A DNA stretch of 64,000 nucleotides from Loktanella sp. 5RATIMAR09 (GTDB taxonomy: Bacteria; Pseudomonadota; Alphaproteobacteria; Rhodobacterales; Rhodobacteraceae). The notes below the pieces were generated by a model. It was not told the origin of the DNA. It saw only the letters and a program-made list of their open reading frames with translations, and made no database searches. The stretch's first letter is position 1; the number at the start of each line of letters is the position of its first letter. This document shows, piece after piece, positions 34,153 to 51,784 of the stretch. The position numbers were made by a program, and so were the translations under genes. Where the stretch lies: NCBI RefSeq assembly GCF_001419985.1, contig NZ_LJAL01000004.1:361757-425756 (forward strand). Reading direction: 5' to 3'.

Positions 34153-34249
34153 GTCGTCGGTCAGACGACGCCTTTGGAGTATGTTCTGCACCATTCACAG
34201 CACAGAGTCACGCGCAGCGCGACCATCAAACCGTGAAAAATGGTCGCGC
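34153..34249 (-). promoter_or_regulatory. two hairpins in the sdhC leader
   Basis: A perfect 10-bp stem, GCGCGACCAT (34217-34226) with ATGGTCGCGC (34240-34249), and a 6-bp stem, GTCGTC (34153-34158) with GACGAC (34164-34169), both lie between the operator pair and the sdhC ATG. Neither ends in a T run on the minus strand, so leader structure rather than termination is more likely. Confidence 0.45.
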
Positions 34250-34269: not shown

Positions 34270-34300
34270 TGTGATCACACGTTTCTAAACTGTGATCACA
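34270..34300. promoter_or_regulatory. paired TGTGATCACA operators upstream of sdhC
   Basis: Two exact copies of the palindrome TGTGATCACA at 34270-34279 and 34291-34300, start-to-start distance 21 bp (two helical turns). The same pair with the same spacing precedes sucC, and a single copy precedes the GntR/FCD regulator gene. The half sites fit the TNGT...ACNA pattern of FadR-subfamily operators. Confidence 0.75.
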
Positions 34301-34337
34301 AATATCCCGCTTTGTTCTAACAAGAGGTTAGCCCGCG

Positions 34338-35363
34338 TCACGCAGGCATCAATGCCCAGTAATCCAGATCAAGAAGCACATCCGCGTGATACTTGCCATC
34401 GTCCCCCCGCAGCACCCCCGCCGCCCCTTTGGTGGCCACCAACCGCAACCGGATCGCACCGACACCCGGCGCATCCGTTTCGGCAACGTCCAGCACCTCG
34501 GACCACGCGCGCACCGTATCACCCGCAAAACACGGGTTCGCATGCGCGCCCCCGTTCAGCGCGACAATCATCTGCGCATTGGCCAACCCGTTGAACGACA
34601 AAGCCCGCGCCAGCGAGATCACATGACCCCCGTAAATCAACCGCTTGCCATCCGCACGGTTGGTCGCATCAAAATGCACCTTCGCGGTGTTCTGCCATAG
34701 ACGGGTCGCCAACATGTGTTCGGCTTCTTCGATGGTCACAGCATCCACATGGTCGATGATTTCACCCACCGTATAATCACCCGACCGGTGCGGTTCACCC
34801 GCCAGCGTGAAATCATAGTCCTGAAAGGTCAGCCCCTGAGGGATCACGAGATCACCGACCGCGACAGCGTCCGCCAGATCAGGGATTATCGCCTCGGGCG
34901 CATCACCTGCACCGCGCTTGCGCACCATCACCCAGCGCACATAGCTCAGCACCTCTTCACCGCGCTGATTGCGCCCCGTCGTGCGCACCCAGACCACACC
35001 GGTTTTTCCGTTCGAGTTCTGCTTGACGCCAATCACCTCGGACTGCGACACCAACGTATCACCCGCATAAACAGGGCGCAGCCAGCGCCCCTCGGCATAG
35101 CCCAGATTGGCGACCGCGTTCAGCGACACATCCGGTACGGTCTTGCCAAAGACGGTGTGAAACGTGACCAGATCATCCATAGGCGAGGCAGGCAAGCCGC
35201 AAGCGCGCGCAAATTCATCCGAAGAATAAAGCGCACCACGGGCGGGATAGAGCGCATGATAGAGCGCACGTTCGCCACCTGAAATCGTGCGCGGCACGGC
35301 GTGTGTGATCACATCCCCAACGGCGTAATCCTCAAAGAACCGGCCTGCGTTTGTCTTGGTCAT
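34338..35363 (-). CDS. mch: mesaconyl-C1-CoA hydratase (beta-methylmalyl-CoA dehydratase), MaoC family
   Basis: 341 aa with two hot-dog/MaoC-like halves, the length of Mch. It hydrates mesaconyl-C1-CoA to (2R,3S)-beta-methylmalyl-CoA in the ethylmalonyl-CoA pathway. The N-terminal FFEDYAVGDVITHAVPRTIS is typical; a second MaoC-like segment includes TNRADGKRLIYGGHVISLARALSFNG. It is followed nearby by a malyl-CoA lyase/thioesterase gene of the same pathway on the same strand. The DUF1737 gene overlaps its start by ATGA. Confidence 0.93.
   Translation of the reverse strand: MTKTNAGRFFEDYAVGDVITHAVPRTISGGERALYHALYPARGALYSSDEFARACGLPASPMDDLVTFHTVFGKTVPDVSLNAVANLGYAEGRWLRPVYAGDTLVSQSEVIGVKQNSNGKTGVVWVRTTGRNQRGEEVLSYVRWVMVRKRGAGDAPEAIIPDLADAVAVGDLVIPQGLTFQDYDFTLAGEPHRSGDYTVGEIIDHVDAVTIEEAEHMLATRLWQNTAKVHFDATNRADGKRLIYGGHVISLARALSFNGLANAQMIVALNGGAHANPCFAGDTVRAWSEVLDVAETDAPGVGAIRLRLVATKGAAGVLRGDDGKYHADVLLDLDYWALMPA
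35304..35313. promoter_or_regulatory. isolated TGTGATCACA inside the 5' end of mch
   Basis: An exact copy of the sdh/suc operator lies 50-59 bases inside the mch coding region (codons for DVITH). It is unpaired. It may be a coincidence of codon use or an intragenic operator. Confidence 0.3.
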
Positions 35364-35563
35364 TGCTGCCCCAATTTCATCTCGGACGAATAGGGCGTGT
35401 CGATTTCTTTAGTCACCGCCTGCCCGCAACGCATCACCCCGTTGGCATGGTCAAAGGCATAGGTCGGATCGCCATAAAGCTCCCAGCCCTTGGACAACGC
35501 CTCGGACACTTTGTGGCAAAATGCCGAGGTGTCGTCCTCGGTCAACAAACGATAGATTTTCAT
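35360..35563 (-). CDS. DUF1737 domain protein
   Basis: 67 aa from the ATG at 35563 (MKIYRLLTEDD). The pattern FCHKVSEALSKGWELYGDPTY and CGQAVTKEI is characteristic of DUF1737, a short domain of unknown function common in Roseobacter genomes. It overlaps the mch start by ATGA and lies 4 bases after the NnrU-like gene, so it belongs to this gene group. Confidence 0.85.
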   Translation of the reverse strand: MKIYRLLTEDDTSAFCHKVSEALSKGWELYGDPTYAFDHANGVMRCGQAVTKEIDTPYSSEMKLGQQ

Positions 35564-35567
35564 AGTC

Positions 35568-36122
35568 TTACCCCCAAGGTGCGACGCCAAGTGCGTAGTG
35601 GATCAACATGACAACCACGGTCACAACGATGGTCACAACAACCGCCACAATCTCTTTCTTGAATGGCGCGCGTGCGGGGCGCACCCAAGGCCCTTCTTGC
35701 GCATTGATGAGCACAATTTCCAAAATCGCCCAAGCGAGCAAACCGCCGAACAGAATAAACGACGCAGTATCGCCATTCACCAGCAAATGCGCCACCGCCC
35801 AGATCGAGAAACCGGTCAGCTGCGGGTGCCTCACCTTCGTGCCCAGCCAAATTTTCGCGCCCTTCGCCGCACTGGCGGCGTAGAAATAGAAGGCCACAAT
35901 CATCAGCAGGTTGTTGATGCCGACCCACATCGGATCACGACCCCAATAAACAGCGCCATCCGCGGCACGATACCCCAGCACCATCAAAACGACGCTCAGG
36001 ATAATGGCGACCGCCATAACCGGATAGCCCGCTCCACCCAGAGACGCCCGCGCGCCCGGTGCAAGCCGTTTGAACAAATGCGCCGCCCACCAAAGGGCAA
36101 CGCCAGCGATAAGTAGTGTCAT
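35568..36122 (-). CDS. NnrU-like integral membrane protein
   Basis: 184 aa with about five membrane segments and the NnrU pattern MWVGINNLLMIVAFYFYAASAAKGAK and VRHPQLTGFSIWAVAHLLVNGDTAS, containing conserved His residues. NnrU was first linked to denitrification gene clusters, but no such genes are present here, so the role is open. It overlaps the malyl-CoA lyase gene start-to-stop by ATGA and is followed by DUF1737 and mch. Confidence 0.85.
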   Translation of the reverse strand: MTLLIAGVALWWAAHLFKRLAPGARASLGGAGYPVMAVAIILSVVLMVLGYRAADGAVYWGRDPMWVGINNLLMIVAFYFYAASAAKGAKIWLGTKVRHPQLTGFSIWAVAHLLVNGDTASFILFGGLLAWAILEIVLINAQEGPWVRPARAPFKKEIVAVVVTIVVTVVVMLIHYALGVAPWG

Positions 36123-36961
36123 GCAGTCTCCAATGCAGCGATAGCCTCAGCTTTCGCCAACGTCGCGCGCGCCGTGACGATATGCAAGTTCTCAACGATG
36201 CGGCCATCAACCACAGCCACCCCCTGCCCCTCGGCTTCGGCCGCTTCAAAGGCGGCAATCTGGCGACGGGCCAGATCAATCTCATCCGCCGTCGGGCCAA
36301 AGGCGGCATTGGCAATCGCCACTTGGGCGGGATGGATCAGGGTCTTGCCGTCAAAGCCCATATCGCGGCCTTCTTCGCATTCCGCGCGCAGCCCGTCTTC
36401 GTCCTTGAAGGCATTATAAACACCATCAAGCGCCACAATCCCCGCAGCCTTCGCCGCCAGCAAGCAATGCTGCAACGCCATCGTCAGCGCACCGCGGGTG
36501 CGCGAATTCAGATCCTTTCCCAGATCATTCGTGCCCAGAACAAAGCCCGCAATCCGAGGGTGCGCTGCGATACTTTGGGCATTTATAACCCCCTCCGGCG
36601 TCTCCATCATTGCCCAGATCGGCAGATCTGGCACCATCGCCGCCAGCGCATCCACATCGGCAGGGCCATTCACCTTTGGCAACAGGATCGCGTCACAATC
36701 CATCGCCGCAACCGCAGCCGCATCGGCCGCCCCCCATTGGGTATCAAGCCCGTTGATCCGCACGATTTTGAGGCGCGGCCCATAGCCCCCGTCCGCAAGG
36801 GCGGCATAAAGCGTATCCCGCGCCGCGACCTTGGCGTCAGGCGAAACAGCGTCTTCCAGATCAAACAGAATTACATCAACCGGCAGCCCGCGCGCCTTTT
36901 CCAAGGCCCGATCCTTGGACCCGGGGATATAGAGGGCTGAACGGTAGGGGCGGCTATGCAT
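36119..36961 (-). CDS. (3S)-malyl-CoA thioesterase / malyl-CoA lyase family (CitE-like)
   Basis: 280 aa from the ATG at 36961 (MHSRPYRSALYIPGSK), with GAGGAAG upstream. HpcH/HpaI-CitE TIM-barrel motifs: LYIPGSKDRALEKA, FDLEDAVSPDAK, ILLPKVNGPADVD, AMMETPEGVINA with the metal-binding Glu, GTNDLGKDL with Asp, and DGKTLIHPAQ. The length is nearer Mcl2, the (3S)-malyl-CoA thioesterase of Rhodobacter, than the 318-aa Mcl1 lyase. This, with mch nearby, points to the ethylmalonyl-CoA pathway. Lyase versus thioesterase cannot be settled here. Confidence 0.88.
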   Translation of the reverse strand: MHSRPYRSALYIPGSKDRALEKARGLPVDVILFDLEDAVSPDAKVAARDTLYAALADGGYGPRLKIVRINGLDTQWGAADAAAVAAMDCDAILLPKVNGPADVDALAAMVPDLPIWAMMETPEGVINAQSIAAHPRIAGFVLGTNDLGKDLNSRTRGALTMALQHCLLAAKAAGIVALDGVYNAFKDEDGLRAECEEGRDMGFDGKTLIHPAQVAIANAAFGPTADEIDLARRQIAAFEAAEAEGQGVAVVDGRIVENLHIVTARATLAKAEAIAALETA

Positions 36962-37145
36962 CGAATCTTCCTCGCAATAATGTTGCGCGGAAGAGGCCAG
37001 AAACCATCCAATCATTCAAGCCCAAATTGCCGCAACGCAGCGACCGGCGCCATCGTTACGGTGTGTTAACCAATTTTGCGTAAGCTCCCCCGACACTTGA
37101 TCCCACGACGGATCACCATGATCCGCTTTGTACAAGGGGAACCAA

Positions 37146-37457
37146 ATGAAACGTATCTTATTCCTGATGTCTTTCGGGATCTGCGGCATGATGCTGGCCG
37201 CGCAGCAGGCGCACGCGCAGGGGAATTGCGCGGACCACGCCACGGTCGTTGAAGGCTTGGGCGAACACTATGGCGAAAGCCGCCAATCCATCGGGCTGGC
37301 AGGGGATAATTCCGTGGTGGAAGTCTTTGCCTCCATGGACACAGGATCTTGGACCATCACGATCACCCGGCCCGGCGGGCTGACATGCCTTGCCGCCGCA
37401 GGGCAGGCCTACCAATATGTGAACGAACCATTGGCGAATTTCGACAGCCAGAGCTGA
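37146..37457 (+). CDS. small secreted protein of unknown function
   Basis: 103 aa from the ATG at 37146, with AAGGGGA upstream. A clear signal peptide ends near AHAQ (residues 20-24), and the mature part has two Cys (NCADH, LTCLAAAG) that could form a disulfide. The segment SVVEVFASMDTGSWTITITRPGG looks like a beta-hairpin. I recognise no family. It stands alone between divergent and convergent neighbours. Confidence 0.75.
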   Translation: MKRILFLMSFGICGMMLAAQQAHAQGNCADHATVVEGLGEHYGESRQSIGLAGDNSVVEVFASMDTGSWTITITRPGGLTCLAAAGQAYQYVNEPLANFDSQS

Positions 37458-37473
37458 GAACCAGTGGTCCGGC

Positions 37474-38229
37474 TTAGGTCAACGCGATCCAGATAAGCCG
37501 GACACCTGTCAAAAGCAGCAACACATATGTCAGCCCAAAGAACAAACGCTCCGGTATCCAATAGTGGGCCTTCACACCCAGCCACGCACCAATCAGGGCG
37601 AATGGGGCCAGCAAGAGGCTACCCATCATCGTGTCCCAGCTGAAGATACCCAAAAACGCATAGGGCACCGCCTTCATCCAGTTCACTGCCCAAAAGACAA
37701 CCACCGTGGTCGCCTGAAACGTCGTCTTGCTCAGGCCCTGTGACAGCAAAAACACCGCAGAGGGTGGGCCACCCGCATGGCTGATAAAGCTGGTAAACCC
37801 GCTCACCAGGCCCGCAATCCATGCAAATGGCGCGGAAAACGGCATGATCGGGATCTTGAGCCAACCGATGGCGCGCGCCCATTGAAAAGCAACGAATGCC
37901 AGACAAATCGCGCCGATCAGCAACCTGAACACATCAGCATCAACCGAGGCATAGAGCCATGCCGCAATAATGCACCCGGGCACCGCCCCGATCATCAGGC
38001 CTTTGGCAGATGGCCAATGCCACTTGCCCCAATAGGGTTTCAACGTGGCGGCATCCACCAGCATAAAGAGTGGCAAAACAATCCCCAAAGCAGCCCCCGG
38101 CGGAACCACCAGCGCCAGAATCGCACCGCCGACAAAGGCCGCACCCGACCCGAAACCAGCCTTGGACATACCGCCAAAGATGATCGCGGGGATGCCCACC
38201 GCAAAAAATTGCCATCCGAATTCAATCAC
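37474..38229 (-). CDS. TauE/SafE family permease
   Basis: 251 aa from a GTG start, about eight membrane segments. N-terminal GIPAIIFGGMSKAGFGSGAAFVGG and central FTSFISHAGGPPSAVFLL are the two family repeats, the latter with the HAGGPP motif typical of this branch. The substrate is unknown. It differs from the other TauE-like permease at 19438 and lacks a TIGR02186 partner. Convergent with the small secreted protein gene. Confidence 0.88.
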   Translation of the reverse strand: MIEFGWQFFAVGIPAIIFGGMSKAGFGSGAAFVGGAILALVVPPGAALGIVLPLFMLVDAATLKPYWGKWHWPSAKGLMIGAVPGCIIAAWLYASVDADVFRLLIGAICLAFVAFQWARAIGWLKIPIMPFSAPFAWIAGLVSGFTSFISHAGGPPSAVFLLSQGLSKTTFQATTVVVFWAVNWMKAVPYAFLGIFSWDTMMGSLLLAPFALIGAWLGVKAHYWIPERLFFGLTYVLLLLTGVRLIWIALT

Positions 38230-38268
38230 GCAAGCAGTCCAAAATACCCATCATTCCAGCATCGTTAG

Positions 38269-39351
<1,083 letters not shown>

Positions 39352-39373
39352 GCAATCTGCACATGAACGATAC

Positions 39374-39403
39374 AAGGGGCTGTCCTACGGGGCGGCCCTT
39401 TTT
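39374..39403 (+). terminator. mdh terminator
   Basis: AAGGGGCTG (39374-39382) pairs with CGGCCCTTT (39393-39401) including G-U pairs, followed by further T. It overlaps the end of the convergent glycosyltransferase gene. Confidence 0.8.
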
Positions 39404-40418
39404 ATTTGTGCAAATAGCCCGTCACATGGGTCTTGTTGACCTCCACCCAGCCATCAATGGCTTGCGGGCTTGCATCTGCAACCTGTCCTGCAAAATACCG
39501 TGTTACGACAGGGGCCGGATCAAAGGCCCGGTCATCCCAAAGCCCGCGCTCCACCAAAGACTTGATGGTTGGTGCGTCAACAGATTTCAGGCGGTGATAA
39601 AGGCTTTCCGCCATGTCCGGTGCCGCCATCAACGCCTCTGCCTGCCGCCGCCGGTGATCTGACGGCGGCATCCCGTCATGATCGTTCAGCGCCCGTATCA
39701 TCCGCGACAGTTTGTAGAACCAGTGGTGCGGCGTCAGACCTTCGAAATGCAAAAGTTCCAGCACCTCGTTGGTCGCACGTGTGCTGACAACCTCTTGGGC
39801 CGACTTGGGCTGTCTTGGCCGGTGGATCGACATATTCAAATCGCGCCCCGTCCGCACAAAGGCCTTGCCCTGCGCATGCCCCGCCAGCCCCCGGTTCGTC
39901 ATCTTGAAATCCGCGCCAAAGACCGCCGTCCCCCGCTTTGCAGGCCCCTGAAACGGACGCCGGAACGCGCCATCAAACAGTTCCGCACCGATCTTGCCCA
40001 TCGGGTGGACACGCTCAGCCACCCCCAGAATGAAACATTCGGTCTCGGCCTCGACCCCGGCCAAAACATCCGCCACAGGCATGGCCGCGCGCAGATACTC
40101 ATCCGCGTCACAATGTAAAATCCAATCCGCTGCGGTGCGCTGATAGGCATCCTGCGCATTGCGCACCTGCCGGATCTCATGGCGATGCGGGCGCGGCTTT
40201 CCGAAGCGGTCCCAATGCGCCGCATCGCAAGCCACCACCGTCACCTGCGGCAAGTGGGTAAAATCAACCGTTCCCGCCGCAGTCGGGCCGTCAAAATACA
40301 AAAATACCTGCGCCGCCCCCAGCGACAGGTGCCACGCCACGAAGGCCTGCAACAACGCAGGAGGTTCATCAACGGTAGCAACGACGGCCCATGAAGGTGT
40401 TTCTGTCAACATCGGCAC
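39402..40418 (-). CDS. glycosyltransferase family 2-type protein
   Basis: 338 aa. Glyco_tranf_2_4-like: N-terminal VVATVDEPPALLQAFVAWHLSLGAAQVFLYFDG, then RNAQDAYQRTAADWILHCDADEYL, where DAD is the metal-binding DxD. The C-terminal half (HRPRQPKSAQ, LHFEGLTPHHWFYKL) matches a Roseobacter family of glycosyltransferases acting on unknown acceptors, probably cell-surface polysaccharide. No signal or membrane segment. Convergent with mdh; the operator region for sucC lies beyond its start. Confidence 0.8.
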   Translation of the reverse strand: MPMLTETPSWAVVATVDEPPALLQAFVAWHLSLGAAQVFLYFDGPTAAGTVDFTHLPQVTVVACDAAHWDRFGKPRPHRHEIRQVRNAQDAYQRTAADWILHCDADEYLRAAMPVADVLAGVEAETECFILGVAERVHPMGKIGAELFDGAFRRPFQGPAKRGTAVFGADFKMTNRGLAGHAQGKAFVRTGRDLNMSIHRPRQPKSAQEVVSTRATNEVLELLHFEGLTPHHWFYKLSRMIRALNDHDGMPPSDHRRRQAEALMAAPDMAESLYHRLKSVDAPTIKSLVERGLWDDRAFDPAPVVTRYFAGQVADASPQAIDGWVEVNKTHVTGYLHK

Positions 40419-40487
40419 TTTGCTACCATAGTCACGAATCTTTCAAAATGGATTAAAACAGGCACAGTCTGAGCACACCTTGCCTTT

Positions 40488-40518
40488 TGTGATCACAGTA
40501 AAAAAATCTGTGATCACA
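40488..40518. promoter_or_regulatory. paired TGTGATCACA operators upstream of sucC
   Basis: Exact copies at 40488-40497 and 40509-40518, start-to-start 21 bp, the same arrangement as before sdhC. They lie 98-128 bases before the sucC ATG. A TATATA at 40555-40560 may be part of a promoter downstream of the sites, but no convincing -35 was found. Confidence 0.75.
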
Positions 40519-40615
40519 AATGTTCGATTTTCCCCTGATTTCCGATTTTTCGCTTATATAGCGTAGATTTTCCATGTTTAGGTGCCGTCAACCGAAGCCA
40601 AATTGGAATTGTCTT

Positions 40616-41809
40616 ATGAACATTCACGAATATCAGGCCAAAGCCTTGCTGCGCAGCTATGGCGCGCCCGTCTCTGATGGCCGCCCCGTCACCCGCGCCG
40701 AGGACGCCAAAACCGCAGCAGGCGAACTTGATGGTCCGCTGTGGGTTGTCAAAGCCCAGATCCACGCAGGTGGACGCGGCAAAGGCAAATTCAAAGAGGC
40801 CGATGCCGGCGAAGCCGGCGGCGTGCGCTTGGCCAAATCGGTCGAAGAGGCTGCACAGGAAGCCAAGAAGATGCTGGGCCGCACATTGGTCACGCACCAG
40901 ACCGGTCCTGCGGGCAAGCAGGTGAACCGCATCTACATCGAAGACGGCTCAGGCATCGAGACAGAAATGTACCTCGCCCTGCTGGTCGACCGCGCGACAA
41001 GCCGCATCGGCTTTGTCGTCTCGACCGAGGGCGGCATGGACATCGAAGAAGTCGCTGAAAATACGCCCGAGAAGATCCTCAACTTCACCGTTGATCCGGC
41101 AACCGGATATCAGCCGTTCCACGGCCGTCGCGTTGCTTTCGCGCTGGGGCTGAAAGGCAATCAGATCAAACAGTGCGTGGCGCTGATGGGCAACCTCTAC
41201 CGCGCTTTCACTGAAAAAGACATGGAGATGCTGGAGATCAACCCGTTGATCGTCACAGACGGCGGTGATCTCAAAGTACTCGACGCCAAGGTCGCTTTCG
41301 ACGGCAACGCCATCTACCGCCACGCCGATATCGCCGCCCTGCGCGACGAAACCGAAGAAGACCCCAAGGAACTGCAAGCTTCCAAGTACGACCTGAACTA
41401 TATCGCCCTCGACGGCGAAATCGGCTGCATGGTCAACGGCGCAGGTCTTGCCATGGCGACAATGGACATCATCAAACTCTACGGTGCTGAACCTGCCAAC
41501 TTCCTCGACGTGGGCGGCGGTGCGACGAAAGAGAAGGTGACCGAGGCCTTCAAGATCATCACATCCGACCCGCAGGTCAAAGGCATCCTTGTGAACATCT
41601 TCGGCGGCATCATGCGCTGCGACGTCATCGCAGAGGGCGTGATTGCGGCCGTGAAAGAGGTCGGCCTGCAGGTCCCACTGGTTGTGCGCCTTGAAGGGAC
41701 GAACGTCGAAAAAGGCAAAGAGATCATCCAGAACTCCGGCCTTGATGTGATCGCAGCGGACGACCTGAAAGACGGCGCGCAGAAGATCGTGAAAGCCGTC
41801 AAAGGTTAA
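40616..41809 (+). CDS. sucC: succinyl-CoA ligase [ADP-forming] beta subunit
   Basis: 397 aa from the ATG at 40616 ([12 protein letters not shown]), the canonical N-terminus; the open frame from 40574 is leader. ATP-grasp domain: [33 protein letters not shown], and the C-terminal [17 protein letters not shown]. With SucD it makes succinate, ATP or GTP and CoA from succinyl-CoA. First gene of sucC-sucD-sucA-sucB-MAPEG-MAPEG-lpd; the paired operators precede it. Confidence 0.98.
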
Positions 41810-41813
41810 TCCC

Positions 41814-41835
41814 GTAGGGTGGGTGAAACCCACGC
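41814..41835 (+). repeat. 22-base hairpin repeat between sucC and sucD
   Basis: GTAGGGTGGGTGAAACCCAC plus GC, which folds by itself (GTGGGT-type arms). The same 22 bases occur at 47047-47068 and, inverted, at 47025-47046. It looks like a dispersed intergenic repeat. Confidence 0.65.
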
Positions 41836-41863
41836 GATGCAAAGATTTTAAGGAGCCACCAAC

Positions 41864-42748
41864 ATGGCCATTCTCGTAAACGAAAACACCAAAGTGATCT
41901 GTCAGGGCCTTACCGGTTCACAGGGCACATTCCACTCCGAGCAAGCGATTGCCTACGGCACCAAAATGGTCGGCGGCGTGACCCCCGGCAAAGGCGGTCA
42001 GACGCACCTTGATTTGCCGATCTTCAACTCGGTCCACGAAGCCAAGCATGTGACCGAAGCCAACGCATCGGTTATCTACGTGCCGCCACCCTTCGCAGCG
42101 GATTCAATCCTTGAGGCCATCGACGCCGAAATGGAACTGATCATCTGCATCACCGAAGGCATCCCTGTCCTCGACATGATGCGTGTGAAGAAAGCGCTGG
42201 AAGGCTCAAAGTCCCGCCTCATCGGGCCAAACTGCCCCGGTGTCATCACGCCTGATGCGTGCAAAATCGGCATCATGCCCGGCCACATCCATAAGCGCGG
42301 CTCGGTCGGCGTTGTCTCCCGCTCCGGCACCCTGACCTATGAAGCCGTCAAGCAGACGTCCGACAGCGGCTTGGGCCAGTCCACCGCCGTCGGCATCGGC
42401 GGCGACCCTATCAAAGGCACCGAGCATATCGACGTGCTGGAAATGTTCCTTGCAGATGACGAAACCCAATCCATCATCATGATCGGCGAAATCGGCGGCT
42501 CTGCCGAAGAGGAAGCGGCACAGTTCTTGGCCGATGAGCGCAAGAAAGGCCGCTGGAAACCGACAGCCGGTTTCATCGCAGGCCGCACTGCCCCTCCGGG
42601 CCGCCGCATGGGCCACGCCGGTGCGATTGTCGCAGGCGGCAAAGGCGACGCGGAAAGCAAGATCGAAGCGATGAAATCCGCAGGTATCGTTGTGGCTGAC
42701 AGCCCCGCAACGCTGGGCGAGGCTGTGCTGGAAGCGATCGGTAAATAA
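41864..42748 (+). CDS. sucD: succinyl-CoA ligase [ADP-forming] alpha subunit
   Basis: 294 aa. CoA-binding N-terminus [35 protein letters not shown], then [27 protein letters not shown], and the phosphorylated His in the [11 protein letters not shown] region. Pairs with SucC. AGGAGCC precedes the ATG. Two identical hairpins separate it from sucA. Confidence 0.98.
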
Positions 42749-42755
42749 ACGCGAG

Positions 42756-42817
42756 GTCCCGGATCAGGTCCGGGACTTCACCCCACATACAACGCAGTCC
42801 CGGAGCAAATCCGGGAC
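42756..42817 (+). repeat. two identical hairpins between sucD and sucA
   Basis: GTCCCGGA and TCCGGGAC form an 8-bp stem twice: at 42756-42776 with loop TCAGG and at 42797-42817 with loop GCAAA. Stems are identical while loops differ, as in REP-like elements. No T run follows, so they may pause RNA decay or polymerase rather than terminate. Confidence 0.7.
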
Positions 42818-42848
42818 CTCATCATCGGCAACCCACTGAGGTCAACTT

Positions 42849-45806
42849 ATGAACGACCATTCCCCCAACGACGTTTTCCATGCCTCTTCATTTCTGCAAG
42901 GCCATAACGCGGAATACGTGGAACAGCTTTATGCCCGTTATGCCGACAACCCCGGTGCTGTCGATGAAAGCTGGCAGGCGTTCTTCCGATCCTTGGGTGA
43001 TACCCCTGCAGATGCCAAGGCCGAGGCTGCAGGCCCGTCTTGGGCGCGCGGCGACTGGCCCCCAGCCCCCAACGATGATCTGACCGCTGCGCTTGACGGC
43101 CAATGGCCCGCCGAACCCGAGGCTGCAGGCAAAAAGATCAAGGAAAAGGCTGCCGAAAAGGGCGTTGAACTCGACGAGACTCAGGTCCGCAACGCGGTGC
43201 TCGACAGCATCCGCGCGCTGATGATCATCCGCGCCTACCGTATTCGTGGCCACCTGATTGCCGACCTTGATCCGCTGGGGATGCGCGAGAACGTGCCGCA
43301 CCCCGAGCTTGACCCGAAATCCTATGGCTTCACCGCCGCCGACATGGACCGCCCGATCTTTATCGACAACGTGCTTGGCCTCGAAGTGGCCACGATGAAC
43401 GAGATCATGGCGATCGTGCAGCGTACCTATTGCGGCACATTTGCGCTGCAATACATGCACATTTCCAACCCCGAAGAGGCCGGTTGGCTGAAAGAGCGCA
43501 TCGAAGGCTATGGCAAGGAAATCGCCTTTACCAAGGAAGGGCGCAAGGCGATCCTGAACTCTCTGGTCCAGGCCGAGGGTTTCGAGAAATTCCTGCACGT
43601 CAAATATATGGGCACCAAGCGTTTCGGCCTTGATGGCGGCGAAAGCCTGATCCCTGCGATGGAACAGATCATCAAACGCGGCGGGCAGTTGGGCCTTGAG
43701 GATATCGTCATCGGCATGCCGCACCGTGGCCGTCTGTCGGTGCTCGCCAATGTGATGCAGAAACCCTATCGCGCGATCTTTAACGAATTTCAGGGCGGGT
43801 CGTTCAAGCCCGAAGACGTGGATGGCTCGGGCGATGTGAAATACCACCTCGGGGCATCATCCGATCGTGCGTTTGATGACAATTCCGTCCACCTGTCACT
43901 GACGGCGAACCCCTCGCACCTTGAGGCGGTCAACCCGGTCGTTCTGGGCAAGGTCCGCGCCAAGCAGGACCAGAAGAAGGACAAGGATCGTACCAAGGTC
44001 ATGGCCGTGCTGCTACACGGTGATGCGGCCTTTGCGGGACAAGGCGTTGTGGCCGAAGGCTTTGGCCTGTCCGGCCTCAAGGGTCACAGGACCGGTGGCA
44101 CCATGCATATCGTGGTGAACAACCAGATCGGTTTTACCACCGCGCCGCATTTCAGCCGCTCGTCACCTTACCCAACCGATATTGCGCTGATGGTCGAGGC
44201 GCCGATCTTCCACGTGAACGGCGACGATCCAGAGGCTGTGGTCCACGCCGCCCGCGTCGCGACCGAATTCCGCCAGAAGTTCCATAAGGACGTGGTGCTG
44301 GATATCATCTGCTACCGACGCTTTGGTCACAACGAAGGCGACGAGCCGATGTTCACCAACCCGGTGATGTACAAAAAGATCAAAAAGCAAAAGACCACGC
44401 TGACGCTCTACACCGAGCGACTGGTGCGCGACGGGTTGATCCCCGAAGGCGAGATCGAAGACATGAAAGCCGCGTTCCAAGCCTATCTGAACGAGGAATT
44501 CGAATCCGGAAAGACCTACAAACCCAACAAGGCCGACTGGCTGGACGGCAAGTGGTCTCATCTGGACCGCAACAAGGACGACTATCAGCGCGGCGCGACC
44601 GCAATCGAGGAAAAGACCTTCGCGGACATCGGCAACGCGCTTTCCAACGCGCCCGAGAACTTTCCATTGCACAAAACTGTTGCGCGCCTGCTCGACGCCA
44701 AGGCCACCATGTTTGAAACAGGCGAAGGAATCGACTGGGCGACCGGCGAGGCACTGGCCTTTGGTTCGCTTCTGACCGAAGGCTATCCTGTGCGTCTTTC
44801 GGGGCAGGACAGTACACGCGGCACATTCAGCCAGCGGCATTCCGGTCTGATCAATCAGGACAACGAAGAGCGCTATTACCCGCTGAACCATATCCGCGAC
44901 GGTCAGGCCCATTACGAAGTCATCGATTCGATGCTTTCGGAATATGCGGTTCTCGGCTTTGAATACGGCTATTCACTGGCTGAACCCAACGCACTCACAC
45001 TGTGGGAAGCGCAGTTCGGCGATTTCGCCAATGGCGCGCAAATCATGTTCGACCAGTTCATCAGCTCTGGCGAAAGCAAATGGCTGCGGATGTCGGGCCT
45101 CGTGTGTCTGTTGCCACATGGCTACGAAGGACAAGGGCCCGAACACTCCAGCGCGCGTCTGGAACGGTTCCTGACAATGTGCGGCGGCGACAACTGGATC
45201 GTCGCAAACTGCACGACGCCTGCGAACTATTTCCACCTGCTGCGCCGTCAGTTGCACCGGACCTACCGCAAGCCGTTGATCCTGATGACACCCAAGTCGC
45301 TCTTGCGGCACAAACTGGCCGTGTCAAAGAAAGAGGAATTCACCACCGGTTCCAGCTTCCACCGCGTGCTCTGGGATGATGCCCAGCAGGGGAATTCGGA
45401 CACCAAACTGGTTGCGGATGACAAAATCAAACGGGTCGTGATGTGTTCCGGCAAGGTCTATTACGACCTGCTGGAAGAACGCGACGCGCGCGGGATCAAC
45501 GATGTGTACATCCTGCGGTTCGAGCAGTTTTACCCGTTCCCAGCGCAATCGGCGATGAAAGAACTCGAACGGTTCAAGAATGCCGAAATGGTCTGGTGTC
45601 AGGAAGAGCCGCGCAATCAGGGGGCGTGGGCGTTTATGGAACCCAATATCGAATGGGTGCTGACACGGTCCAAAGCGAAACACACCCGGCCTACCTACGT
45701 GGGGCGCGCCGCCGCCGCCTCGCCTGCCACAGGTCTGGCCAGCAAACATAAAGCAGAACAAACAGCGCTCGTGAATGATGCGTTGACCATCGAAGGAACA
45801 AAGTAA
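42849..45806 (+). CDS. sucA: 2-oxoglutarate dehydrogenase E1 component
   Basis: 985 aa, full length. It decarboxylates 2-oxoglutarate with thiamine diphosphate and passes succinyl to the lipoyl group of SucB. The N-terminal [19 protein letters not shown] is the E2-binding start; [14 protein letters not shown] (about residue 290), [15 protein letters not shown] with the ThDP-binding GD...N region, FGHNEGDEP, and [21 protein letters not shown] are family blocks. The start is preceded by GAGG. The stop overlaps the sucB start (TAATG). Confidence 0.98.
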
Positions 45807-47014
45807 TGAGCACCGAAGTCCGCGTCCCCACCCTTGGCGAATCCGTGACCGAGGCCACCGTCGCCACATGGTTCAAACAGCCTGGCGATGCCGTGGCCGT
45901 TGACGAAATGCTCTGCGAGCTGGAAACCGACAAGGTGACTGTCGAAGTGCCAAGCCCCGTTGCAGGCACCCTGTCCGAAATCGTAGCCAACGAGGGTGAC
46001 ACCGTTGGTGTTGATGCGTTGCTGGCACAGATCAGCGAAGGCGATGCCGCGCCAGCGCCAAAAGCCGAGAAGCGCGAAGAGGCCCCCAAGGCCGAAGAGC
46101 AGCCCGCCCCCGCCGCCACAGACGAAGGCGACAAAGACGTTGAGGATGCGCCATCGGCCAAGAAACTGATGGCAGAGAACAACCTCACTGACGTCAAAGG
46201 CACCGGCAAAGACGGCCGCGTGATGAAAGAAGACGTGCTCAACGCGCTTTCATCATCCGCGCCTGCATCTGCGCCAACGTCCGCTCCGCGCGCGCCCGTC
46301 GCCGCATCCCAAGCGGACCGCGAAGAGCGCGTGAAAATGACAAGGCTAAGACAGACCATCGCCAAGCGTCTGAAAGACAGCCAGAACACCGCCGCCATGC
46401 TGACCACCTATAACGAGGTCGACATGACCGAGGTGATGGCGCTGCGCAACGAATACAAAGACCTGTTCTTGAAAAAACATGGCGTCAAACTGGGCTTCAT
46501 GTCCTTCTTCACCAAGGCCTGCGTGCATGCTTTGAATGAAGTGCCAGAAGTGAACGCCGAAATCGACGGGACGGACGTGGTCTATAAAAACTACGTCAAC
46601 ATGGGCATCGCCGCAGGTACGCCCACAGGCCTTGTGGTGCCGGTGATCAACGACGCCGACCAGATGTCCTTTGCCGCCATCGAAAAGGCGATTGCCGAAA
46701 TGGGCGCCAAAGCCCGCGACGGCAAGCTGAGCATGGCCGAAATGCAAGGCGGCACTTTCACTATCTCGAATGGTGGTGTTTACGGCTCGCTGATGTCCTC
46801 GCCCATCCTGAACCCCCCGCAGTCGGGCATCCTCGGCATGCACAAAATTCAGGACCGCCCGATGGCGATCAATGGTGAGGTCGTGATCCGTCCGATGATG
46901 TATCTGGCACTGTCTTACGACCACCGGATCGTGGACGGCAAAGGTGCGGTGACGTTCCTTGTCCGGGTGAAAGAGGCGCTTGAGGATCCACGCCGTTTGT
47001 TGATGGATTTGTGA
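45806..47014 (+). CDS. sucB: dihydrolipoamide succinyltransferase (E2)
   Basis: 402 aa. Lipoyl domain with the modified lysine K43 in ETDKVTVEV, an Ala/Pro/Glu-rich linker (about 80-105), a peripheral subunit-binding domain ([21 protein letters not shown]), a second Ala/Pro linker and the catalytic domain ending [13 protein letters not shown] with the HxxxDG site. It transfers succinyl to CoA within the 2-oxoglutarate dehydrogenase complex. It overlaps sucA by one base. Confidence 0.98.
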
Positions 47015-47024
47015 TGGATCACGC

Positions 47025-47068
47025 GCGTGGGTTTCACCCACCCTACGTAGGGTGGGTGAAACCCACGC
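47025..47068. repeat. perfect 44-bp palindrome after sucB
   Basis: Two 22-base arms meet without a loop: 47025-47046 (starts GCGTGGGTTTCACCCACC) and its exact reverse complement 47047-47068. Each arm is the element also found once between sucC and sucD. In RNA it would make a very stable hairpin between sucB and the MAPEG genes. Confidence 0.8.
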
Positions 47069-47095
47069 TTGCCACATAAACCAAAAGGAAACCCT

Positions 47096-47482
47096 ATGAC
47101 ACCTGAACTCCAATACCTCGTCTACGCCGTTATCCTGCTGATCGTGCACGTCCTCGTGCAGGCGACCTTCAGCGATCTAAGCAAAGGCCTTGGCTGGGCG
47201 TTGGGTCCACAGGATGAAGAACGTGAGCAAAATGTCACCGCTGCACGGATCGAACGCGCCTTACGCAATTATCTGGAAACCTTGCCGGCTTTCATCGCAT
47301 TGGCCCTAACGCTTGCCGTCACCGAATTGGGCAACGCCACCTCCGCTCTTGGTGCCGCGATCTGGTTCTGGGCGCGCGTCGCCTATATCCCCGCCTATGC
47401 CTCCGGCGTTCCGCTGGTGCGCTCGGTTGCATTTTTTGCGTCATTGGCAGGATTGGTCATGATGATTTTGCCGCTGTTGTGA
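47096..47482 (+). CDS. MAPEG family membrane protein A
   Basis: 128 aa from the ATG at 47096, with AAAAGGAAA upstream. Four membrane segments. RIERALRNYLETLPAFIALAL and ARVAYIPAYASGVPLVRSVAF are the MAPEG signatures (membrane-associated proteins in eicosanoid and glutathione metabolism). Bacterial members have unproven substrates. It lies between sucB and lpd and is followed one base later by a second MAPEG gene. Confidence 0.85.
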   Translation: MTPELQYLVYAVILLIVHVLVQATFSDLSKGLGWALGPQDEEREQNVTAARIERALRNYLETLPAFIALALTLAVTELGNATSALGAAIWFWARVAYIPAYASGVPLVRSVAFFASLAGLVMMILPLL

Positions 47483-47483
47483 T

Positions 47484-47894
47484 ATGACCCCCGAACTCAC
47501 CGTCCTCGCCCTCGCCGCTCTGCTCCAAGGCGTCCAGTTCATCCTCATGGCGATCCCTGCCAATATCGAACTCGGCCCCGGCAAAACCATGTCGCCCCGC
47601 GACGCCAGCCGCATGGGTAAACCCTTGGTCGAACAAGTCAGCGATAAGACCGCGCGCCTTTTCCGCGCGCTGAACAACCATTTCGAGGCACTCATCCTCT
47701 TCACCATCGCCGTTGTCGTCATCACCCTTGGCGACAAAGGCACCGGATTTTCGGCCATCTGCGCATGGACCTATCTGGCCGCCCGCGTTCTTTATGTCCC
47801 CGCTTATTACTTCGGCCTCACCCCGTGGCGGTCACTAATTTGGTTTGTGGGGTTCACCTCAACCATGCTGATGATACTGTCGGCCCTGATATGA
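47484..47894 (+). CDS. MAPEG family membrane protein B
   Basis: 136 aa, four membrane segments. KTARLFRALNNHFEALILFTIAVV and AARVLYVPAYYFGLTPWRSLIWFVGF match the MAPEG pattern. It starts one base after protein A; the pair could form a hetero-oligomer or be a duplication that has diverged. It lies 62 bases upstream of lpd within the TCA gene cluster. Confidence 0.85.
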   Translation: MTPELTVLALAALLQGVQFILMAIPANIELGPGKTMSPRDASRMGKPLVEQVSDKTARLFRALNNHFEALILFTIAVVVITLGDKGTGFSAICAWTYLAARVLYVPAYYFGLTPWRSLIWFVGFTSTMLMILSALI

Positions 47895-47956
47895 CATATG
47901 TATGTACGGGTTGTGCACGCGCTGTGTACGCCCTGTGACACCCTAAAGGAGACCCC

Positions 47957-49345
47957 ATGTCCAGCTATGACGTCATCGTAATCGGCGCCGGTCCCGGCGG
48001 CTATGTTTGTGCTATCCGCTGTGCCCAGTTGGGCATGAAAGTGGCCTGTGTCGAAGGGCGCGAAACGCTGGGCGGCACCTGCCTGAACGTGGGCTGCATC
48101 CCGTCGAAGGCTATGCTGCACGCCACCCATATGCTGCACGAAGCCGAACATAATTTTGCAACCATGGGCCTGAAGGGCAAAGCGCCTTCCGTCGACTGGA
48201 AACAAATGCTGTCCTATAAGGATGACACGATTGCCCAGAACACTGGCGGCATCGAATTTCTGTTCAAAAAGAACAAGGTAGACTGGATCAAAGGCTGGGC
48301 TACAATCCCCGAAGCAGGCAAAGTCAAAGTCGGTGACGAAGTGCACGAGGCCAAGCACATCGTTATCGCATCAGGGTCCGAAGCCGCATCCCTGCCCGGC
48401 GTCGAGGTCGATGAAAAGACCGTCGTCACATCCACAGGCGCGCTGGAACTGGGCAAGATCCCCAAGAAACTCGTCGTGATCGGCGCAGGCGTCATCGGGC
48501 TTGAGCTGGGCTCGGTCTATGCCCGTCTGGGGGCCGAGGTCGAGGTGATCGAATTCCTTGATGCTATCACCCCCGGCATGGACAAAGAAATCGCCCGTCA
48601 GTTCCAGAAAATGCTGACCAAACAGGGGCTTAAATTTACTCTTGGTGCGGCTGTGCAAGGCGTCGAAGTCAAGAACAACAAGGCCACCGTCACCTATAAA
48701 CTGCGCAAAGACGATAGCGAACACACGCTTTCCGCAGACACCGTTCTGGTCGCCACCGGGCGCAAACCCTACACCAAAGGGCTGGGTCTGGAAGAACTCG
48801 GCGTTGAGATGTCCGAACGCGGCCAAATCAAAACCGACGGCAAATATGCGACGAATGTGGCGGGCATCTACGCTGTTGGCGACACCATCGCAGGCCCCAT
48901 GCTGGCCCATAAGGCCGAAGACGAAGGCATGGCCGTCGCCGAAGGCATCGCAGGCCAACACCCCCACGTCAACTACGGTGTCATTCCCGGTGTGATCTAC
49001 ACACATCCCGAGGTGGCAAATGTGGGTGAGACCGAAGAAACCCTGAAAGAACAAGGGCGCAAGTACAAAGTCGGCAAGTTCCCCTTCATGGGCAACGCGC
49101 GTGCCAAGGCCAATTTCGCAGGTGACGGGTTTGTAAAGATCCTCGTAGATGCGACCACCGACCGCGTGCTGGGCGCGCATATCATCGGCCCGATGGCAGG
49201 TGACCTGATCCACGAAATCTGCGTGGCCATGGAATTCGGTGCAGCCGCGGAAGACCTTGCACGGACTTGCCACGCGCATCCAACCTACTCCGAGGCTGTG
49301 CGCGAAGCCGCCCTTGCCTGCGGTGACGGCGCGATTCACGCCTAG
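47957..49345 (+). CDS. lpd: dihydrolipoamide dehydrogenase (E3)
   Basis: 462 aa. FAD loop [21 protein letters not shown], redox-active disulfide in [16 protein letters not shown] (about residues 38-53), NAD loop [22 protein letters not shown], and the C-terminal [15 protein letters not shown] with the catalytic His-Glu. It reoxidises the lipoyl groups of SucB. AAAGGAGA precedes the ATG. Last gene of the suc cluster. Confidence 0.98.
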
Positions 49346-49352
49346 ATTTCGT

Positions 49353-49390
49353 GGGCCGGACCGGCCTTTTGTGCCGGTCCATGCCGGCCC
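49353..49390 (+). terminator. hairpin after lpd
   Basis: GGACCGGC (49358-49365) pairs with GCCGGTCC (49373-49380), with an outer GGGCC/GGCCC stem. There is no T run after it, so it may be a 3' stabiliser or a Rho-assisted end. Confidence 0.5.
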
Positions 49391-49579
49391 CGCTCCTGAT
49401 GAGGAACGGTTCTCGGGCAGGCAATTTTAGCTGTGACCCGAGAACACTTGCTGCAAAAACAGCACATTGGACGGGCAATTGCTTGCTTTTCGGGGGTTTT
49501 CAGAGAGATAACAGGGACAACTGCGGTCGTTTTCTGCCTTGATAGCGGTGACCGTCAATAGTGAGTCCGAGAACACCGC

Positions 49580-50416
49580 ATGAAGCGTTTCATTGTTGCC
49601 CTCTTCTTGAGTTTCCTCATCACTGGTCCAGCGCAGGCATGGACAGCGAACTCGGGGTTTTTCGCGGATCTCGAATATGTCGCTGGCACCGACATCAACG
49701 CCCCTAACGGCGCATCCCTGTCGCTTTGCCATGAAACAAGAGATATCCGGATTTTGGGATATACGGTTTCCAGCAACATCCTTGGCTATGTTTTGTCCAC
49801 GGACCGTTGCACAGGACAGATCGAACGGCCCTTCAGCCCGCAGCAAATGGAAACGGCGCAGTCACTGAACCTGATTGACGCGAGCCTGCCTTCTGTGGCG
49901 CGCAACAGCCTGCAACGCACCATTCAGAACTATGGCATCTGGGTCGCCATAAGCCTTGCCCTTATCGCCGTCATCTGGCGGCGCATGAAATCGTTGCTCG
50001 GTCTCGACCCCACCGCACCGATGCGCAAGAAGGCGACACAGCGCATCCTGACGGCGATGTGTTATGTGGGCAAATGCGACGGGATTGTTGCATCGAATGA
50101 AATTGCGCTGATCACCAAAGCAGCAAGCCGTCTGACGCGGACCAACATTCCGTCCACAGAGGTTATTCGCATCACCGACCATATTGACCTGAACCTGACG
50201 CCGCAGGACTTTATCAACTTCGGCAAAGGTCTGCGCGATTCCGAGAAAGATGTCATGATGCGCGGTGCGTTTTTGGTGGCGCTTTCGAGTGGACGGATCA
50301 TTCCAAGCGAATACGCCTTTATAACCAATCTATCCTATGGGATCGGCATGCCCGGCGAAGATTTCCGGCGGGTGATGAACCTCGCGCTGGAAGATCTCGA
50401 TATCTACGGAACCTAA
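49580..50416 (+). CDS. membrane protein with cytosolic TerB-like domain
   Basis: 278 aa. A signal peptide or first membrane segment (residues 1-20, ends AQA) leads to an extracytoplasmic part of about 95 residues with two Cys (LSLCHE, TDRCTG). A membrane helix follows (about 117-134, GIWVAISLALIAVIW), then a helical C-terminal domain (ILTAMCYVGKCDGIVASNEIALI, DVMMRGAFLVALSSGRIIPSEYAFI) that resembles TerB, a metal-associated tellurite-resistance fold. Function unknown. Its stop shares bases with the convergent gntR-type gene. Confidence 0.7.
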   Translation: MKRFIVALFLSFLITGPAQAWTANSGFFADLEYVAGTDINAPNGASLSLCHETRDIRILGYTVSSNILGYVLSTDRCTGQIERPFSPQQMETAQSLNLIDASLPSVARNSLQRTIQNYGIWVAISLALIAVIWRRMKSLLGLDPTAPMRKKATQRILTAMCYVGKCDGIVASNEIALITKAASRLTRTNIPSTEVIRITDHIDLNLTPQDFINFGKGLRDSEKDVMMRGAFLVALSSGRIIPSEYAFITNLSYGIGMPGEDFRRVMNLALEDLDIYGT

Positions 50417-51063
50417 CCCTTCAGCATCCGCAAACCTTGGGTCGAATCGGCGCGCACAGCCAAGCGCAGACCCGGCTCGTCACCGGCCTTCAAGGCTGCA
50501 AGGATCAGTTTGTGATGTGCCGGCGGATCGGTGCGGTTCAGCCGCCCGTAAAGCGCCCGCATCGTCGGCCCCAATTGCAGCCACACCGTTTCTGTCATCG
50601 CCAGCATCGCAGGGGCCTGGGCGCGCAGGTAAAGCGTGCGGTGGAACTCTAGGTTCAGGCGGATATAGCCCGTTGCATCATGCCGCGCGATAATCTGATG
50701 AAAGCCCTGATTGAGCGTCTCTAGCCGTTCAATCAGCGCAAAATGCGCCCGTGGCAAAGCGCGCGATGCAAGCTCGGCTTCCAGCAGGGCCCGCAAGGTG
50801 GCCAGCTCTTCAATCCGCTCGTTCGAGAGTTCCGGTGTCGAGACACGCCCCGATGACGACAGGAATAACGCACCTTCGGCAACCAACCGGCGCACAGCCT
50901 CGCGTGCAGGCGTCATCGAGACGTCATAGGTTTTGCCGATACCCCGCAGCGTCAGGGCTTCGCCGGGTGCGATTTCCCCGTGCATGATCCGCGCCCGCAA
51001 AGCCCGGTACACCCGTTCGTGTGCGGCAGTCGTATTTTCTTGGGGGCGCGGCTGGATCATCAT
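50413..51063 (-). CDS. GntR family regulator, FCD (FadR) subfamily
   Basis: 216 aa from the ATG at 51063 (an adjacent ATG at 51060 is equally possible). N-terminal winged helix: VYRALRARIMHGEIAPGEAL, SMTPAREAVRRLVAEGAL. The C-terminal FCD domain has probable metal-ligand His residues in NLEFHRTLYLRAQ and PPAHHKLILAAL; such domains bind small organic acids. One TTGTGATCACAA lies 8 bases before the ATG, fitting autoregulation, and the same palindrome is paired before sdhC and sucC. I infer that this protein controls the TCA genes; the ligand is unknown. Confidence 0.88.
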   Translation of the reverse strand: MMIQPRPQENTTAAHERVYRALRARIMHGEIAPGEALTLRGIGKTYDVSMTPAREAVRRLVAEGALFLSSSGRVSTPELSNERIEELATLRALLEAELASRALPRAHFALIERLETLNQGFHQIIARHDATGYIRLNLEFHRTLYLRAQAPAMLAMTETVWLQLGPTMRALYGRLNRTDPPAHHKLILAALKAGDEPGLRLAVRADSTQGLRMLKG

Positions 51064-51070
51064 GGGGCTT

Positions 51071-51082
51071 TTGTGATCACAA
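51071..51082. promoter_or_regulatory. TTGTGATCACAA operator at the gntR-type gene
   Basis: A perfect 12-bp palindrome in the 31-base gap between the metallopeptidase stop and the regulator start. It contains the same 10 bases found in pairs before sdhC and sucC. Binding here would cover the translation start region of the regulator gene. Confidence 0.72.
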
Positions 51083-51094
51083 AAAGCAGATTGG

Positions 51095-51784
51095 TCAATC
51101 GTCGAAAACAATGCGATGCAGCTTGTCGCCCTCTTCACGCAGCCATTGCCTGTGTTGATCATAGGCAGGGCAGAGTTTTTCAACGACAGACCAGAATGCC
51201 GGTTGATGGTTCATTTCAACCAGATGGGCGACCTCATGGGCAGCCACATAGTCAAGCACGGCAGGCGGGGCCATGATCAACCGCCATGAATACATCAAAG
51301 CGCCGGTGCTTGAACAAGATCCCCAACGGGACCGTGTGTCGCGGATCGACAGGCGCGTATAGGTCTTGCCCAGTTGCTGCGCATAGCGGTCCGAGGCCTG
51401 CGCAAGCGCGTCGCGCGCGGCGTGGCGCAAAAGCGCCTTGGTCTGGACCGCGGCGGACGCACCAGCAGTGACCTCAATGCGATCCTCGGCAATCCGCGCA
51501 CGTTTGCCGGCACCCACAACAATCGGCATTGCCACCCCGCGCACCGGCACACTCTGGCCCACTTGGGCCACCATCGCAGGGCGCATATCCGCAAGGTGGC
51601 CGCGCAGCCACGGTTCTTTGGCGCGCAAGAAAGCGATTCCCTCACGCTCGGGCGCAGATCGTGGCAACGTCAGCGTCACACGACCATCCAGACGCGAAAC
51701 ACGCAACGACAGGCGCTTGGCGCGTATAGAACGGCGCAAAACCACCTCGATCGGGGGGTTGCCTTTCAGGGTATGACGGCCCAT
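51095..51784 (-). CDS. YgjP-like (DUF45/M48) metallopeptidase
   Basis: 229 aa from the ATG at 51784 (MGRHTLKGNPP), with AAGGTGG upstream. The DUF45 pattern is clear: RRSIRAKRLSLRVSRLDGRVTLTLP, TRSRWGSCSSTGALMYSWRLIMAP, and the zinc motif HEVAHLVEMNHQPAFW (HExxH with a downstream His). E. coli YgjP is the type example; substrates are not established. It precedes the GntR-type gene by 31 bases on the same strand and is divergent from the FYDLN-acid gene. Confidence 0.9.
   Translation of the reverse strand: MGRHTLKGNPPIEVVLRRSIRAKRLSLRVSRLDGRVTLTLPRSAPEREGIAFLRAKEPWLRGHLADMRPAMVAQVGQSVPVRGVAMPIVVGAGKRARIAEDRIEVTAGASAAVQTKALLRHAARDALAQASDRYAQQLGKTYTRLSIRDTRSRWGSCSSTGALMYSWRLIMAPPAVLDYVAAHEVAHLVEMNHQPAFWSVVEKLCPAYDQHRQWLREEGDKLHRIVFDD

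What the first reader, a model, noticed from the sequence alone, without database searches (positions are those of the whole stretch)
34270..51082. A GntR/FCD regulator with a shared palindrome before sdhC, sucC and itself
TGTGATCACA occurs twice before sdhC (34270, 34291) and twice before sucC (40488, 40509), both pairs exactly 21 bp apart, and once (51072) just before the GntR/FCD regulator gene. A 10-base word is expected about 0.06 times in 64 kb, so five copies at three promoters is far above chance. I infer that this regulator controls succinate dehydrogenase and the 2-oxoglutarate/succinyl-CoA steps together and represses itself. FCD proteins bind organic acids, so a TCA intermediate or related acid may be the signal. 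I cannot recall a named regulator with this site.
Basis: partly seen in the sequence, partly recalled or inferred. Interest (0 to 1): 0.82.

Follow-up and report, generated by a model that had tools for sequence, protein, structure and literature searches.

The report
AkgR switch for TCA-cycle genes
A regulator gene that is very likely AkgR, described before in Rhodobacter sphaeroides, is predicted to turn on two blocks of TCA-cycle genes by binding twin DNA sites that occur in 338 of 394 genomes sampled from its bacterial family, and likely turns down its own gene through a third site.

Summary
TGTGATCACA occurs as exact pairs 21 bp apart before sdhC and sucC, and once before the GntR/FCD gene. 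A sixth exact copy at 35304, inside a MaoC-type gene, was missed; 20 relatives lack it, so it is probably chance. The regulator is very likely AkgR (RSP_0981): one paper predicts RSP_0981 to control sucCD, sdh and sucAB-lpd, another calls AkgR an activator with GTGATCAC among its sites, and an R. sphaeroides-like genome carries a 74% identical ortholog near sdhB plus both pairs. The pair is in 338 of 394 family genomes, tracks the regulator gene, and is in 0 of 140 genomes from other alphaproteobacterial families. Not described in the papers I could search: the sdhC pair keeps helical phase with a conserved -35-like box; three genomes carry triple arrays at the same pitch; the regulator's own site lies 13 bp after a TTGAC box and almost abuts the start codon. 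I infer activation of sdh and suc and repression of a leaderless akgR promoter. Binding and expression were not tested.

The parts
50413..51063 (-). GntR/FCD regulator gene, likely akgR, 216 aa
   Evidence: PF00392 and PF07729; ATG start from the relatives
51072..51081 (.). single TGTGATCACA before the regulator gene, likely self-operator
   Evidence: exact; core kept in 62 of 80 named relatives
51093..51098 (-). TTGACC, -35-like box of the regulator gene (predicted)
   Evidence: TTGAC 13 bp before the core in 55 of 62 relatives that have the site, 12 bp in 2
34270..34279 (.). proximal TGTGATCACA before sdhC
   Evidence: exact; pair before sdhC in 20 of 20 fetched relatives
34291..34300 (.). 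distal TGTGATCACA before sdhC, 21 bp from the proximal one
34207..34212 (-). CGTGAC, -35-like box of sdhC (predicted); the hexamer 17 bp on (34184-34189, GCAGAA) is a poor -10 in this genome
   Evidence: box conserved and in helical phase with the pair
33746..34129 (-). sdhC, first gene of sdhCDAB (33746 down to 30113)
   Evidence: TIGR02970, PF01127; start at 34129 is my choice of ATG
40488..40497 (.). distal TGTGATCACA before sucC
   Evidence: exact; pair before sucC in 20 of 20 fetched relatives
40509..40518 (.). proximal TGTGATCACA before sucC
40616..41809 (+). sucC, first gene of sucCD-sucAB-lpd (to 49345)
   Evidence: NF001913; sucA, sucB and lpd also named
35304..35313 (.). sixth exact copy inside a MaoC-type gene, probably chance
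   Evidence: no counterpart in 20 relatives

Best explanation
This is very likely the AkgR regulon: the GntR/FCD protein is predicted to activate sdhCDAB and sucCD-sucAB-lpd from twin TGTGATCACA sites 21 bp apart upstream of each promoter, and likely represses its own gene from a single site inside that gene's promoter. Shown here: the sites, their 21-bp pitch, their conservation before sdhC and sucC, their co-occurrence with the regulator gene, and the phased -35-like box before sdhC. Inferred: each 10-bp palindrome binds one dimer; the 21-bp pitch (two helical turns) puts two dimers on one face of the DNA; at sdhC that face is kept in register with the -35 box about 57 bp downstream, or one turn less, or one or two turns more, which I read as upstream (class I-like) activation with the sites centred near -96 and -117. 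At the regulator's own gene the site sits between a TTGAC box and the start codon, so a bound dimer would block RNA polymerase, and the transcript would start at or near the ATG (leaderless). The controlling signal is unknown; a TCA-cycle metabolite is a guess.
For: Pair in 338 of 394 family genomes, reversed control pattern in 0 of 394, 0 of 140 genomes of other alphaproteobacterial families. Pair before both sdhC and sucC in 20 of 20 fetched genomes. Regulator (E <= 1e-30) and pair: both 333, regulator only 34, pair only 5, neither 22; Fisher p 1.8e-16. RSP_0981 predicted to control sucCD, sdh and sucAB-lpd; GTGATCAC among AkgR sites, AkgR called an activator. Ortholog 74% identical, close to sdhB, both pairs, in an R. 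sphaeroides-like genome. Offsets pair to -35-like box at sdhC: 38 of 43 have the box; 28 at 57-60, 10 others all near whole helical turns away. TTGAC exactly 13 bp before the regulator's own site in 55 of 62. Triple arrays at 21-bp pitch before sucC in three genomes.
Against: 34 of 367 genomes with a regulator hit lack an exact pair; with one mismatch allowed 14 of these 34 (and 2 of 22 without a hit) gain a pair somewhere, positions not checked. If the regulator hit must reach 1e-60, 11 genomes move to 'no regulator' and pair-only rises from 5 of 27 to 10 of 38 (hand count); one of these, G114, is rated 100% complete. The window's own sdhC -10 is poor (GCAGAA). No common sucC promoter was resolved. 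The self-site is missing in the R. sphaeroides-like genome and in 18 of 80 named relatives. The identity of G051 as R. sphaeroides is inferred. No p value is corrected for ancestry. The primary AkgR paper was not readable.
Confidence: 0.8

Rival explanations
1. Another FCD regulator of the same genome reads these sites, and this regulator gene is a neighbour that merely shares the motif.
For: The genome has 6 FCD proteins; PMC6365646 proposes that a Pseudomonas relative, 32% identical to AkgR, binds the same GTGATCAC, so paralogs could share the site.
Against: The pair tracks this regulator; its own promoter carries the site, while of the other five FCD loci only L122 has a core copy, about 1.1 kb before its FCD domain. 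Co-occurrence of the paralogs with the pair was not tested.
Confidence: 0.1
2. The protein is a repressor, not an activator, at sdh and suc, as it is likely to be at its own gene.
For: Many GntR/FCD proteins are repressors (recalled); the self-site has repressor geometry.
Against: AkgR is called a transcriptional activator in print; the sdhC pair ends about 57 bp upstream of the -35-like box and keeps helical phase with it, too far for simple blocking. DNA looping was not excluded.
Confidence: 0.1
3. The sites belong to a CRP/FNR-type protein, or are chance.
For: TGTGA and TCACA are the arms of a CRP site (recalled).
Against: The arms are fused, with no 6-bp spacer, as the sequence shows; PMC4344238 states that R. 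[quoted passage not shown] pairs are in 338 of 394 genomes, control in 0, and track the GntR/FCD gene.
Confidence: 0.02

Closest known systems
AkgR (RSP_0981) of Rhodobacter sphaeroides; Imam, Noguera and Donohue 2015, mBio e02461-14 (not held: known here from citing passages and recall)
   Same: GntR family; predicted targets sucCD, sdh, sucAB-lpd; GTGATCAC among its sites; ortholog beyond sdhB in an R. sphaeroides-like genome
   Different: Here the gene lies beyond lpd, on the other side of the suc genes, and has its own site in its promoter; the R. sphaeroides-like copy follows ygjP closely and has no such site
PS417_07240 of Pseudomonas simiae (deoxyribonate cluster), PMC6365646
   Same: 32% identical to AkgR; proposed site GTGATCAC
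   Different: Other pathway; one site 40-47 bp before the start codon, no pair described in the passage seen
CceR (RSP_1663), LacI family
   Same: Also predicted to act on sdh and mdh
   Different: Other protein family and other motif, [A/G/T]GTT N6-8 AAC[A/C/T]
E. coli McbR (PDB 4p9f), best hit among solved structures
   Same: GntR/FCD protein matched over residues 20-206, E 1.8e-19
   Different: Distant homolog; its site and targets were not compared

Membership tests
AkgR | GntR DNA-binding domain with FCD domain | tested here: met
   PF00392 and PF07729 above cut-off
AkgR | Orthology to RSP_0981 | tested here: met
   74% identical best hit (next 30%) close to sdhB in G051. G051 taken as R. 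sphaeroides from a 100% match over 170 residues to PDB 4l9y, 4.6 Mb and 7 contigs; its name is not shown by the tool
AkgR | Sites before sdh and suc operons | tested here: met
   window, G051, 20 of 20 fetched relatives; published targets
AkgR | GTGATCAC motif | tested here: met
   core of all five reported copies; motif named for AkgR
AkgR | Activates its targets | not testable with these tools
   needs expression data; phase at sdhC is only suggestive
CRP/FNR-type site | TGTGA-N6-TCACA | tested here: not met
   TGTGATCACA has no spacer between the arms (sequence)
Metal-dependent carboxylate-binding FCD domain | Asp and three His metal ligands (recalled) | tested here: inconclusive
   N137, H141 and H184 invariant in 113 ortholog rows, no clear last His; mapping to ligands is from memory, no structure made

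The most novel reading that the evidence does not exclude
AkgR is a two-mode, helix-phased TCA-cycle switch: face-aligned dimers at 21-bp pitch (pairs, sometimes triples) act as a movable upstream activator that tolerates whole helical turns but not half turns, while one dimer wedged between the -35 box and the start codon shuts a leaderless akgR promoter; in some genera the regulon has spread to further TCA genes such as fumC.
Probability: 0.5. Interest if true: 0.5.

Novelty: new member of a known kind. Interest (0 to 1): 0.35.

Why it matters
The 21-bp pitch, the whole-turn offsets before sdhC and the wedged self-site give a specific and cheap test of how one GntR/FCD protein could both activate and repress.

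Tried and rejected
Sixth site at 35304 as a MaoC operator: rejected, no counterpart in that gene or within 250 bp of its start in the 20 fetched relatives. The five other exact copies in the genome: four within long open frames, one (L001) about 90 bp before a gene that reads like an outer-membrane protein, not followed. CRP-like site: rejected on spacing. Two of the nine hits of the long-gap search (G303, length 109; G333, length 120) were off-phase but do not precede sdhC, so they were dropped from the phase count. Of 43 distinct sdhC upstreams, 5 have no GTGAC[AT] box and are outside the phase test. For the 37 hits the downstream gene was checked only for those whose loci were later in hand. 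A common -35/-10 for sucC was not resolved; only the distances to the start codon (14 of 50 at 96-101, 32 of 50 at 106-114, 4 longer) hint at a one-turn shift. In one search, 24 sucC rows 'without strict pair' are loci cut off before the promoter and were not counted. In one search one distinct pair had sucA as nearest known gene and was left out of the sdhC and sucC counts. The one-mismatch pairs were not placed relative to genes. Paper searches beyond: 1,242 papers, 20 listed, two useful; 5 papers, all seen already; 0 papers. Papers: passages seen of PMC4344238, PMC6365646, PMC4419725 and PMC5507952; only the reference entry seen in PMC11323563, PMC7471390 and PMC8557541; nothing seen of the AkgR mBio paper itself.

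Full report
Observation. With up to one mismatch there are 7 matches against a shuffled mean of 1.81 (largest 5 in 100 shuffles). The genome has 11 exact copies in 3.70 Mb. Of the five outside the window, four are within long open frames and one is probably intergenic; about 3.5 copies are expected from base count alone. The pairs are the signal: GTGATCAC-N13-GTGATCAC occurs twice in this genome, before sdhC and before sucC. The 35304 copy lies in a MaoC/mesaconyl-CoA-hydratase-like gene and has no counterpart in that gene, or within 250 bp of its start, in 20 relatives.

The regulator. The gene 50413-51063 (-) encodes 216 aa with GntR and FCD domains. Its closest named relatives are in Roseobacter sp. 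CCS2 (92%) and Yoonia maricola (91%). Of the 6 FCD proteins of the own genome, the nearest paralog is 32% identical.

It is very likely AkgR. [quoted passage not shown] sphaeroides. [quoted passage not shown] That RSP_0981 is AkgR is recalled from the abstract of mBio e02461-14, which is not held. G051 matches 100%, with 4.6 Mb in 7 contigs; the other listed genomes match at 95% or less. In G051 the regulator ortholog is 74% identical (next hit 30%), and of all spacings from N5 to N35 only N13 pairs occur, two of them. The order is lpd-sucB-sucA-sucD-sucC-[pair]-mdh-mcl-nnrU-meh-[pair]-sdhCDAB-regulator-ygjP, which fits the numbering from RSP_0962 through RSP_0974-6 to RSP_0981.

Conservation and co-occurrence. 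The pair occurs in 338 of 394 family genomes (by genus 337 of 393), and the reversed control pattern in 0 of 394. The regulator (E <= 1e-30) is in 367 of 394. By hand count over both lists: both 333, regulator only 34, pair only 5 (G096, G256, G264, G319, G325; 70-93% complete), neither 22; Fisher p 1.8e-16, uncorrected for ancestry. Seven of the 27 regulator-less genomes were identified by elimination, because the tool listed only 20. Of the 17 regulator-less genomes rated at least 95% complete, none has the exact pair. A stricter regulator cut-off of 1e-60 moves 11 genomes and weakens the table: pair-only becomes 10 of 38, among them G114, rated 100% complete (hand count). Allowing one mismatch, 14 of the 34 regulator-only genomes and 2 of the 22 'neither' genomes gain a pair somewhere; positions were not checked. 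Of 142 genomes drawn across the class only 2 have the pair, and both are of the same family (the own genome and G210), so 0 of 140 from other families. Whether those 140 have the regulator was not tested.

Anatomy at the targets. In 20 of 20 fetched genomes, chosen because one search listed two nearby pairs, one pair precedes sdhC and one precedes sucC. Over all loci in hand there are 94 distinct pairs with a known gene downstream: 50 before sucC, 43 before sdhC, 1 with sucA as nearest gene. Among the 80 regulator-fetched loci, where pairs were not selected for, 9 of 11 neighbouring cores less than 80 bp apart are 21 bp apart; the others are 31 and 55. Three genomes have three sites at 21-bp pitch before sucC. 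One genome (G042) has an extra pair before a class II fumarase gene.

Helical phase at sdhC. A box CGTGAC[AT], followed 17 bp later by TATnnn-like hexamers in many rows, lies downstream of the pair. In one search, 37 of 198 genomes matched the pair followed by GTGAC[AT]C after 40-70 bp; from the coordinates 33 matches are 93-96 bp long and the other four are 83, 85, 105 and 106. One search (gaps 67-97, 394 genomes) gave 9 hits, of which 7 precede sdhC. Over distinct sdhC upstreams, 38 of 43 have the box, at offsets 57-60 (28), 47-49 (3), 69-70 (4) and 78-79 (3). Some off-mode loci were fetched because they were off-mode; the searches that found them allowed any gap from 40 to 97. The ten off-mode offsets deviate on average 0.75 bp from whole turns of 10.5 bp around the mode; a uniform draw did as well with frequency 5e-6 in 200,000 draws, uncorrected for ancestry. 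I infer that the pair acts on polymerase from one face of the helix. The window itself has the box at the modal offset, but a poor -10 (GCAGAA). The sucC distances to the start codon fall in two groups, 96-101 (14 of 50, the window at 98) and 106-114 (32 of 50), about one turn apart, which is consistent but weaker.

Anatomy at the regulator. Before the regulator gene, 62 of 80 named relatives keep the 8-bp core, 57 of them the full 10-mer. In 55 of the 62 a TTGAC lies exactly 13 bp upstream of the core and in 2 at 12 bp; the other 5 have TTGAT at the same place. The first in-frame ATG or GTG is 8-12 bp after the core in 58 of 62. I infer a promoter whose -10 overlaps the operator and a transcript that starts at or near the ATG. 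The 18 without the core include Limimaricola and Roseibacterium loci, and the R. sphaeroides-like genome also lacks it, so self-control is not universal.

Signal. FCD domains often bind acids through a metal held by Asp and three His (recalled). In 113 ortholog rows (at least one gene is counted twice) N137, H141 and H184 are invariant and no clear last His is seen, so the pocket may be atypical. No effector was tested.

Verdict. A real, conserved regulon of a regulator that is very likely already named.

Noticed in passing
L121 (G042:C16:228293-228321): An extra 21-bp pair lies before a class II fumarate hydratase gene (TIGR00979), so in that genome the regulon may reach a further TCA step.
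   Followed up: partly
L243, L246, L253 (G285, G135, G191): Three palindromes instead of two, all at 21-bp pitch, before sucC.
   Followed up: partly
L242 (G296:C168:12436-12464): An extra pair before an open frame that reads like a thiolase (acetyl-CoA acetyltransferase) by eye; no family scan was made.
   Followed up: no
L001 (G000:C1:387938-387947): A single exact copy about 90 bp before a gene that reads like an outer-membrane protein; unpaired, possibly chance.
   Followed up: no
window 34338-37015: Genes for a mesaconyl-CoA-hydratase-like protein, an NnrU protein and a malyl-CoA-lyase-family protein lie between the two pairs, in the same order in the 20 fetched genomes.
   Followed up: no
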